Translations under genes and position numbers: made by a program
DNA from: Tubulanus polymorphus
Taxonomy: Eukaryota > Nemertea > Palaeonemertea > Tubulaniformes > Tubulanidae
Reading direction: 5' to 3'
DNA: 64,000 nucleotides
Assembly (NCBI RefSeq): GCF_964204645.1
Contig: NC_134027.1
Coordinates: 23,672,485-23,736,484 of the forward strand
Shown here: positions 1,842 through 4,800 of the stretch, piece after piece
How positions within the stretch are numbered: position 1 is the stretch's first letter
How the letters are laid out: every line of letters begins with the position of its first letter
The notes under the pieces: generated by a model
What the model was told of the DNA's origin: nothing
Databases searched by the model: none
Seen by the model: the letters and a program-made list of their open reading frames with translations, nothing else

Positions 1842-4800
1842 CTAAGAGATAAAGAAAATGAAACGTTCACTATTAACATCATCGCAGCGCATCAATTTAC
1901 AGTCACATTGACGTTTAGAAACAATTCCTGCGATAAGTGGTGATCTTAAAACCGTCTGACCACAACGTAATTCATCAACGGTATACCATCCCTTGCAGGG
2001 TTTGAATGTGATGACTTTGCCACGGTACTCTCTTGCAGGGATTTGAACCTGATGGCATCGTCAGACTCTGCCACATTCCTCTCTCACAGGAAATTGAACC
2101 TGATTGCATTATGACTCTGCCACATTCTTCCCTTGCAGGGGTTTGACCTGATGGCATCATGAGACTCTGCCACATTCCTCCCTCATAGGGACTTGTTCCT
2201 GATGGCATCGTGAGCCACGTTCTTCCCACGTAGGTGATGGTATCCTCTGTATATTTATATAAACTTACCCCCACTGATCGTACGAGTTGATATCCCATAT
2301 AACACCTTGAGTGAAGATTTTATGTTCATACATGGCTGTAAGACAGAGAAAGAACGTACCAAGGATTATTTCGGATTTTTCGGGTATTTCATAACTAATC
2401 ACCGGGTTGAACTGTTAAACGCATTCACTGCCACCCGGATAATACAGTGCTGCCCCCAGTTGCTACTACAAGTACACTTGTTGTTGGTAAGAGCTATTAT
2501 TGTTGCATAATTGACCGATGAGCATTGAGAATGAAAAATGAGTTTGTACACATTGTCAACCAATCAGGAACTGCGTCACTCCCATGAGCAATAGGGCAAA
2601 TATCATACAGTGAATAGGAAGGATAAGCTACAAGTAAACTTGTAGTGGTACCGGTGGCACAACCGGAACTATGAGATAACTCGAAGTGGTAATGATGGCT
2701 GAACCGGAACTACGAGATAACGCGAACCGAGACTACGAGATAACTCGTAGTGGTACTGGTGGCAGAACCGGAACTATGAGATAACCCGAAGTGGTAATGA
2801 TGGCTGAACCGGAACTACGAGATAACGCGAACCGAGACTATGAGAAAACTCGTAGTGGTACTGATGGCAGAATCGGAACTATGAGATAACTCAAATTGTC
2901 ATTGATGGCAGAACCTGAACTATGGGATAACTCGTAGTAGCAATGAAGGCTGAACCAGAACTATGAGATAACTCATAGTGACAATGATGGCTGAACTGGA
3001 ACTATGAGATAACTCATAGTGACAATGATGGCAGAACCGGAACTATGAGATAACTCAAATTGTGATTGATGGCAGAACCTGAACTATGAGATAACTCGTA
3101 GTAGCAATGATGGCAGAACCGGAACTACAAGAAATCCAGGAAGTCAGTAGTGAATGCGTTAACTGCTTTGAAAAAATGCTGTAAGGGAGGCTTGGTGTTT
3201 TAGATGACTTACCGATAAGTACACCTAACACAAATGGAGACAGTTTCTGGAATATGATCGAGTTGCTCGGTTTGTTGCCCTTGAACACTTTATGCGGCAA
3301 AATTCGTTTGATGTCTTCGGCGTCCATTCCGGATTTGACGAGTTCAGCCTCAGCCTCGGCGGCCGGTTTACCGACCATCAACGCTTCGGTCTGCGCCAGG
3401 AAATTGGCCATCAAAATCTACAACGACGATAACAGTCGAAAACGTTCAGCTCGGAAACTAAAGTTTGAGAAAAGAGACAAAGTCTATCATCATCAAGGAT
3501 TCGATCACTACTCACCTCATGATGGAGCCCGTTTTGAACGGGGTTGTGAGTTTCAACCGGGGCCAGAAAATCACACGGTATTAACCGAGTACCTGCGCAG
3601 GCAAAGAGAAACGTACAACATTATTTCGATTCATAACCATTGGAAAAATTTTGAGAAAATGGGTTCTCATGATGATACAGGGTAGCGCCACTTCCCCCCT
3701 CCCACCCCCACTAAGATGGTCCTGGACTGGTTTTAGGTGTAAGTCATGACTATGGAACCAGCCCCAGAGTTTTCCCAGCCACATGTAACAAAAATTCATC
3801 GAGTGAATCAACATCAGGTGCATGGAGAAATGTACAACTACCCCGGTTAATTCATTTTCTATGAATCATAAATTGATTAAGATTCATAGCATATCCAAAT
3901 GCCACCATCTTCACTCGTCAAGGGATTCGAACCCACTACGCTAAAGCTGTTCCCCGAACCCCTTGACCTCACGAGTCGTTGGAGTCGTTACTAGCCGACC
4001 AGAATCAGGTCGGGCCAATCATAGAGCCTGTAACAAACAACGTTAGGCTTCTGTTGGTTTTCCCGTTAAATGGACCAATCAGCGAACGTTTTACCGAACA
4101 AGGAAGTATTTCGCAAATCGATAAATGGCGTCATGCACAACAGCGCCAGTAATGAAGTCACAAATCGTGAGGCCAGGGGGCTGGTGGAAGCGAGTACGGG
4201 AGCGATGCCGGACCACTGGCAAGCGAGGATGAATTCCCCGGGTTTCCAGATTTATTTTTTTAAGCAAAATTTGTCGAATTCTTTGATTTCAATTATTTTT
4301 ACTTTTATTTTGATTTTGATCTTGATTTTAATTATTATTATTATTATTTCCTGACTTTTTCAGGTCTTTTCCAGTTTGGTGGCCACCCTGCGTCTATTTC
4401 GATGAGCCCTGAAATTTTCTTTTTTTCGTCATTACCTTGATGGATAAGTTGATAAAACGCGTGTTGGCCGTTCGTACCGGGTTCACCCCAGACGATCGGC
4501 CCAGTCGAGTAGTCGACACGCGCGCCCGAACGCGTCACGTATTTACCATTCGACTCCATATCACCTTGTTGAAAATATGCAGCGAATCTGTGCATATACT
4601 GAAACAATTGAGAAATATAATTATCAGACACGTGCAAATAACTAAACAATAGGCATTATCAGCACATTCCCCTCAACTTAGGGTATTTTTGCCAGGTTTG
4701 CAGTTTCTGTTCCCATCAAATAAATGAGTACCACTCAGGACATAATCCACAGGTTCAAGGTTTTGTCCCTTCAAACCCACTCAACACCGCTCGAGGCATT

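What the first reader, a model, noticed from the sequence alone, without database searches (positions are those of the whole stretch)
2414..3162. A TTAA-flanked MITE whose right half has become a minisatellite
The element keeps both inverted ends and TTAA flanks, yet holds about 490 bases of 42-base repeats. The sister copy at 5420-5719 has one related copy of the unit at the same place, and 56239-56519 has none expanded. It is a direct view of a minisatellite born inside a DNA transposon. If the expanded form can still move, it would spread minisatellites by transposition.
Basis: partly seen in the sequence, partly recalled or inferred. Interest (0 to 1): 0.7.

Follow-up and report, generated by a model that had tools for sequence, protein, structure and literature searches.

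The report
MITE end grown into a minisatellite
A small non-coding jumping element carries near one end a short DNA motif already present about one and a half times, and at many of its landing sites that motif has grown into a longer tandem array; this is a known kind of event, seen here with unusual clarity.

Summary
2414-3162 is one TTAA-flanked inverted-repeat element with a 491-base array (2637-3127) of 12 units of 41 bases, not 42. Its family is dispersed: a body motif occurs 141 times against 0 for the control.

Unexpanded copies show the source. In 16 of 23 aligned copies (my reading) the right end holds two direct copies of an 18-bp palindrome plus TGGCA/CCGGCA, 41/42 bp apart: about one and a half units, a ready-made seed. 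Of 32 stretches examined for arrays, 28 have at least 3 full units of one derived unit, 2 have the canonical unit, 2 hold about 2.5 units. Arrays largely carry locus-private variants. Complete unexpanded members of the same subfamily exist, one the nearest relative of 2414-3162. So the seed-bearing form most likely spread and arrays grew afterwards; movement of an expanded form is neither shown nor excluded.

The unit resembles a piggyBac-type transposase-binding module, by analogy only. The window holds a second, separately born array (25738-26035). Tandem repeats riding on TTAA MITEs are in print (Xenopus Xmix/Xstir): a new member of a known kind.

The parts
2414..3162 (+). Expanded TTAA-flanked MITE of the derived subfamily
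   Evidence: Ends, body, array
2416..2431 (+). Left terminal inverted repeat, one extra A after TTAA
   Evidence: sequence
2466..2483 (+). Left subterminal palindrome (PL), degenerate
   Evidence: read against the family layout
2560..2576 (+). Conserved body motif CCAATCAGGAACTGCGT
   Evidence: 0 mismatches
2628..2645 (+). First palindrome (P1) at the left edge of the array
   Evidence: read
2637..3127 (+). Minisatellite: 12.0 units of 41 bp, with a 105-bp compound period in its left part
3147..3162 (-). Right terminal inverted repeat with TTAA
5420..5719 (+). Unexpanded canonical copy with a seed of about 1.4 units (P1 near 5639-5660, P2 5683-5700)
56239..56519 (-). Unexpanded canonical copy with a degenerate, shortened seed
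25725..26035 (-). Truncated canonical copy: right-end remnant (25725-25740, 3 mismatches) plus a separate array of 7.1-7.3 units of the canonical 42-bp unit; no body found beside it

Best explanation
A TTAA-targeting non-autonomous element (about 290 bp) has on its right side two direct copies of a module, an 18-bp palindrome plus TGGCA/CCGGCA, 41-42 bp apart. Shown: most well-kept copies carry this one-and-a-half-unit seed, and the minisatellite unit equals its period. Inferred: slippage, unequal exchange or gene conversion between the two module copies adds whole 41/42-bp units, mostly after insertion; this happened at many insertions, above all in one subfamily, and each array then partly homogenised on its own. 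The seed was spread by transposition; the arrays mostly grew in place. Most likely, but untested, the module is a transposase-binding site like those of piggyBac-type ends, which would explain why the palindromes of both sides changed together between subfamilies and why the unit is about 42 bp.
For: Seed with both modules at full spacing in 16 of 23 aligned copies (my reading); 24 of 55 sampled sites hold 1.2-1.7 units, against 4 with more than 2.5. Same unit, place and strand beside the body in 17 fetched loci with both. Units within loci differ by 0.111 on average, between loci by 0.196, and 7 of 188 distinct units are at more than one locus. Unexpanded copies with the derived seed: L106, L114, L118, L138; L114 is sister to 2414-3162 (93/79) and its next-best body match. 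Unit distance does not follow body distance. A separate canonical-unit array occurs in the window and at L137. Module motif and spacing recur in a second family with the same ends and resemble piggyBat ends.
Against: In 12 of 28 arrays another locus is on average nearer than the array's own units. The body tree is weak (2 of 37 branches starred); one clade of expanded copies is not rejected (p 0.113), and with only the complete unexpanded derived copies the label needs just 3 changes. Expanded L043 and L057 are sisters. 23 of 55 sampled sites hold under one unit, so deletion is common and contraction possible. No transposase was linked: the PF13843 search did not complete (last). Modules are no better conserved in copies than the rest (0.80-0.81 against 0.84).
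Confidence: 0.72

Rival explanations
1. An already expanded progenitor of the derived subfamily transposed and spread arrays; the unexpanded derived copies are later contractions.
For: All 28 larger derived arrays share one derived unit; one clade of expanded copies is not rejected; L043 and L057 are sister expanded copies without like flanks.
Against: Complete unexpanded derived copies with ordinary one-and-a-half-unit seeds, one of them sister to 2414-3162; arrays differ in variants and compound periods and do not follow the bodies.
Confidence: 0.18
2. Growth is tied to transposition itself: repair after excision anneals out of register at the repeated modules and adds units.
For: The repeats lie at an element end and growth occurred at many separate insertions. 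No direct evidence.
Against: Arrays show private variants and compound periods, which point to later rounds.
Confidence: 0.07
3. The element captured an existing minisatellite from elsewhere.
For: A few arrays of the unit, such as L074, were found without a matched body.
Against: The unit is the element's own end sequence, present in unexpanded copies.
Confidence: 0.03

Closest known systems
Xmix / Xstir of Xenopus (T2 MITE; Hikosaka and Kawahara 2004, itself not seen)
   Same: A TTAA-targeting MITE whose internal segment was amplified into a tandem repeat family; MITE, array and composite forms are described (passages).
   Different: T2 MITEs have AGGRR ends and are placed in Kolobok; here the ends are CRCRTTYGCTGCC. 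Whether Xstir has a seed of this kind was not checked.
miDNA4 of Xenopus tropicalis (Scalvenzi and Pollet 2014, itself not seen)
   Same: A MITE with one monomer or an array of variable copy number; microhomology proposed for growth (passages).
   Different: Tc1/mariner MITE; its monomer is thought to be captured, here it is the element's own end.
Tetris / Galileo of Drosophila
   Same: Tandem repeats near transposon ends with variable copy number; extra transposase-binding sites reported for Galileo (passages).
   Different: Foldback elements with about 220-bp repeats.
BrickBuilt of Porphyromonas gingivalis
   Same: Minisatellite inside a MITE (abstract line, passages).
   Different: Bacterial, unrelated sequence.
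piggyBat transposon ends
   Same: A short motif plus imperfect palindrome repeated every 44 bp on the left end, each repeat binding a transposase dimer; an added site restricts activity (passages). Here TGCC plus palindrome lies at 14 and 56 from the right tip, TTAA counted.
   Different: Different motif and palindrome; no transposase linked here; no binding shown.

Membership tests
MITE | Short terminal inverted repeats | tested here: met
   (282 against 35 control)
MITE | Target-site duplication | tested here: met
   TTAA at both ends; exact at both ends in 8 of 32 copies of a crude scan that includes some false ends and counts 2414-3162 as shifted by one base on the left
MITE | Short, no coding capacity, many copies | tested here: met
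   About 290 bp unexpanded; 141 body-motif sites. The one listed ORF of at least 110 aa that overlaps 2414-3162 lies at 3055-3414 on the minus strand and runs mostly outside it; no protein search was made of it
Tandem repeat riding on a TTAA MITE (Xmix/Xstir kind) | Tandem unit derived from the MITE's own sequence, inside its ends | tested here: met
Tandem repeat riding on a TTAA MITE (Xmix/Xstir kind) | The array-bearing form itself transposes | tested here: inconclusive
piggyBac superfamily | TTAA target | tested here: met
   Kolobok shares it
piggyBac superfamily | CC[C/T]T terminal motif (as given in PMC2872659) | tested here: not met
   Ends begin CRCR; hallmark quoted
piggyBac superfamily | Mobilised by a DDE_Tnp_1_7 transposase with matching ends | not tested
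   PF13843 genome search did not complete (14 tries, last); a decayed relative lies just outside the ends of L061
Kolobok superfamily | TTAA target with RR terminal letters | tested here: not met
   TTAA met, but ends begin CR; definition

The most novel reading that the evidence does not exclude
The minisatellite monomer is one transposase-binding module, and its 41-42-bp period is set by the spacing of transposase dimers on the element's end. Growing the array multiplies binding sites (about 27 units at L074), which immobilises that copy, as an added site restricts piggyBat, and makes it a decoy that soaks up transposase. Arrays would be transposition dead ends and perhaps a brake on the whole family.
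Probability: 0.3. Interest if true: 0.65.

Novelty: new member of a known kind. Interest (0 to 1): 0.4.

Why it matters
It gives a natural series, from a one-and-a-half-unit seed through about 2, 4, 9 and 12 to 27 units, at many insertions of one element in one genome, with a canonical subfamily that seems to expand rarely as a comparison. That lets one ask what makes a minisatellite start (seed length, hairpin, age) and whether arrays of binding sites switch an element off.

Tried and rejected
Two separate elements with unrelated interiors: rejected, because body, unit strand and both ends follow the family layout. Capture of an outside minisatellite: rejected as the main account.

Selection keeping the palindromes in copies: not supported. 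On distinct palindromes, 0 of 500 shuffles reach the observed pairing or covariation in the pooled set and in P1/P2, but 86 and 41 do in PL, and 143 and 53 in array consensuses; sliding the partner by -2 gives equal or slightly higher covariation in the pooled set (0.176 against 0.166) and in P1/P2. The change between subfamilies explains much of it. Modules are not better conserved than the rest. Hairpin strength as the cause of the subfamily difference: the derived unit folds better (-7.4 against -4.8 kcal/mol), but the canonical seed folds better than the derived one (-17.8 against -15.8) and the bare palindromes do not differ consistently.

Paralogous empty site of 2414-3162: none. Autonomous partner: not found. 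L061 and L062 (3.0 and 2.3 kb between the same ends) had one ORF each scanned with Pfam, no match; other frames were only listed. Organism: not identified. ORFs read by eye as DAD1-like and zinc-finger (no search) suggest an animal; a bryozoan was considered because of 11 large contigs, but of the four assemblies listed the three whose size is in the listing do not fit.

Papers: abstract, section list and passages of PMC2872659; passages only of PMC9659126, PMC6947457, PMC4596501, PMC3849761, PMC11707139, PMC4079207, PMC6004289 and PMC12628747; others only as search listings; none read whole. The 2004 and 2014 Xenopus papers were not seen themselves. Searches for prior print.

Full report
What is there. 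The stretch 2414-3162 is a single element. Its left end (2416-2431) and right end (3147-3162, reverse strand) each lie 2 mismatches from the pattern TTAACRCRTTYGCTGC. The window holds 12 matches at up to 3 mismatches against 2.55 expected, and no shuffle of 100 reaches 12. TTAA stands on both sides, with an extra A after the left one. Between the ends lie a body of about 200 bases, related to 5420-5719 (70%) and to the reverse of 56239-56519 (71%), which are 82% alike, and a tandem array at 2637-3127. TRF calls the period 41, with a 105-bp compound period in the left part; wrap-around alignment gives 12.0 units.

The family. In the window's own genome (267.8 Mb, 77 contigs, unnamed) the end pattern with up to one mismatch occurs 282 times against 35 for the reversed control, and a 23-base body motif with up to 3 mismatches 141 times against 0. 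A search with 2414-3162 lists 64 matches (40 of 177 candidates scored) and one with 5420-5719 lists 44 (40 of 222 scored); both are lower bounds.

The seed. I aligned 23 copies: 20 fetched from the second search, the two unexpanded window copies, and L070. The usual right end reads: palindrome P1, TGGCA, a spacer of about 19 bases, palindrome P2, CCGGCA, terminal repeat, TTAA. P1 and P2 are near copies of the 18-base palindrome CTACGAATATATTCGTAG, 41/42 bases apart. By my reading, 16 of the 23 rows show both at full spacing; 7 (56239-56519, L085, L086, L089, L092, L095, L097) have lost or shortened part. So the usual element already holds about one and a half units, and the minisatellite period is the spacing of its own direct repeat. 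A third palindrome of the same kind lies on the left side.

How often it grew. The 55 best body-motif sites (0 or 1 mismatch, of 141) were classified. Four hold more than 2.5 units (L043 12.4, L050 9.0, L057 4.9, L137 5.3), one 2.1 (L123), 24 hold 1.2-1.7, three 1.05-1.17, and 23 less than one unit. In eight of the 55 only 171-208 bases to the right were held. Of 32 stretches examined for arrays, chosen mainly because they matched 2414-3162, 28 have at least 3 full units of a derived 41-bp unit, 2 (L137 and window 25738-26035) are arrays of the canonical unit, and 2 (L076, L078) hold about 2.5 units; two of the 28 lie 2 kb apart in one locus (L041). In the 17 fetched loci where one search found both a body match and an array, the main array hit is next to the body on the same strand; the unit's palindrome also gives shorter hits on the other strand. 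A search with the canonical array of the window scored all its 9 candidates: besides itself only L137 matches over 201 bases, and the other 7 over 74 or fewer. At least two separate births, one of each unit type, are therefore very likely.

Two subfamilies. Bodies fall into a canonical and a derived group that differ at 23 consensus columns, 18 of them outside the left palindrome. All 18 expanded derived-unit copies with a body row have more derived than canonical letters; L137 has canonical unit and body. In the 55-site sample 3 of 14 derived and 1 of 36 canonical sites are expanded (Fisher p 0.061); one site tied and four had no body row. Several of the 14 have truncated right ends and one (L096) has canonical palindromes, so this is a hint only. 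Left and right palindromes agree in type within elements: of 50 left-right site pairs, 40 are canonical-canonical, 8 derived-derived, 2 canonical-derived and 0 derived-canonical (98 of 132 possible sites in 44 elements were recognised).

Growth before or after landing. L106, L114, L118 and L138 are unexpanded copies with the derived seed. In a tree of 40 bodies without the left palindrome the sister of 2414-3162 is L114 (93/79), which is also its next-best body match in the genome (75%); the 12 canonical rows form one side of a branch (98/97); the expanded label needs 8 changes against 13.5 in shuffles. The tree is weak: 2 of 37 branches starred. With only the complete unexpanded derived copies that have body rows (L106, L114, L138) the label needs 3 changes, and one clade of expanded copies is not rejected (AU p 0.113). 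The other starred branch joins two expanded copies, L043 and L057 (95/89). Outside the element they are alike only where a second family copy lies beside L043; their arrays differ (12.4 and 4.9 units), and the unit variant they share also occurs in L045 and L072. They could be a moved expanded copy or two growths. Units differ by 0.111 within loci and 0.196 between, and 7 of 188 distinct units occur at more than one locus; but in 12 of 28 arrays some other locus is on average nearer than the array's own units, so homogenisation is partial. Unit distance does not follow body distance (rho -0.36, permutation p 0.97, 16 loci). I conclude that the seed-bearing form was what mostly spread and that most arrays grew in place; an expanded progenitor is less likely but not excluded.

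What the unit may be. Read from the right tip with TTAA counted, TGCC followed by a palindrome stands at 14 and 56 (hand count on the consensus). A second family of 556-575 bp (9 copies, L059, L060, L063-L069) has the same ends but another body; in four copies scanned, TGCC plus a different palindrome (TGACGAGATAAATCGTCA and the like) was matched at 14 in three and at 57 in three. In piggyBat a short motif plus imperfect palindrome is repeated every 44 bp on the left end, each repeat binds a transposase dimer, and a third site restricts transposition (passages of PMC11707139). The likeness suggests that the minisatellite unit is a transposase-binding module. It is analogy only: no transposase was linked, since the PF13843 search did not complete (14 tries, last), and the ends fail the CC[C/T]T hallmark of piggyBac given in PMC2872659 and the RR of Kolobok. 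Against present function, the modules are no better conserved than the rest of the copies (0.80-0.81 against 0.84), and covariation of the arms is largely the change between subfamilies and does not beat all slid controls.

Mechanism. Shown: the seed, its period, the largely private arrays, the unexpanded relatives. Inferred: the first whole-unit duplication by slippage or unequal exchange between P1 and P2, perhaps helped by hairpins. As DNA the derived unit folds at -7.4 kcal/mol (z -4.5) and the canonical unit at -4.8 (z -0.6), but the bare palindromes (-3.5 and -4.7 against -4.4) and the 85-base seeds (-15.8 against -17.8) do not favour the derived form, so hairpin strength does not plainly explain why the derived subfamily has most arrays.

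Known or new. Tandem repeats riding on a TTAA MITE are in print for Xenopus Xmix/Xstir (passages), variable arrays for miDNA4, a minisatellite in a bacterial MITE, and end repeats with extra binding sites for Galileo, discussed for Tetris. This is a new member of that kind, with a clear seed and many parallel expansions in one genome.

Noticed in passing
window 7063-7489, 37107-37574, 44717-45254: Three arrays of one 56-bp unit on the same strand; another multi-locus minisatellite whose carrier was not sought.
   Followed up: partly
window 28537-28811, 29465-29585, 35909-36472, 43945-44376: Arrays or fragments of one 39-bp unit (CACACAACTGTGGAACTGGATCCAG and variants), the one at 35909 on the opposite strand.
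   Followed up: partly
window 10155-11351 and 31724-33371: Long homogeneous arrays: 46-bp unit, 26 copies, and 42-bp unit, about 40 copies, the latter open in several ORFs.
   Followed up: no
window 56872-60135 (-) and 61891-62229 (+): A 1087-aa ORF rich in zinc-finger patterns and an ORF that reads like DAD1, both named by eye without a search.
   Followed up: no
L063, L064, L065: Three copies of the second, 556-575-bp family, 98-99% alike with the same 8 bases before the left end, on one contig within about 20 kb: likely local duplication, not transposition.
   Followed up: partly
L061 144-991 and 1074-4121: A 3.0-kb element with the same ends begins 83 bases after a decayed piggyBac-type transposase remnant (PF13843 matches in two pieces; positions).
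   Followed up: partly
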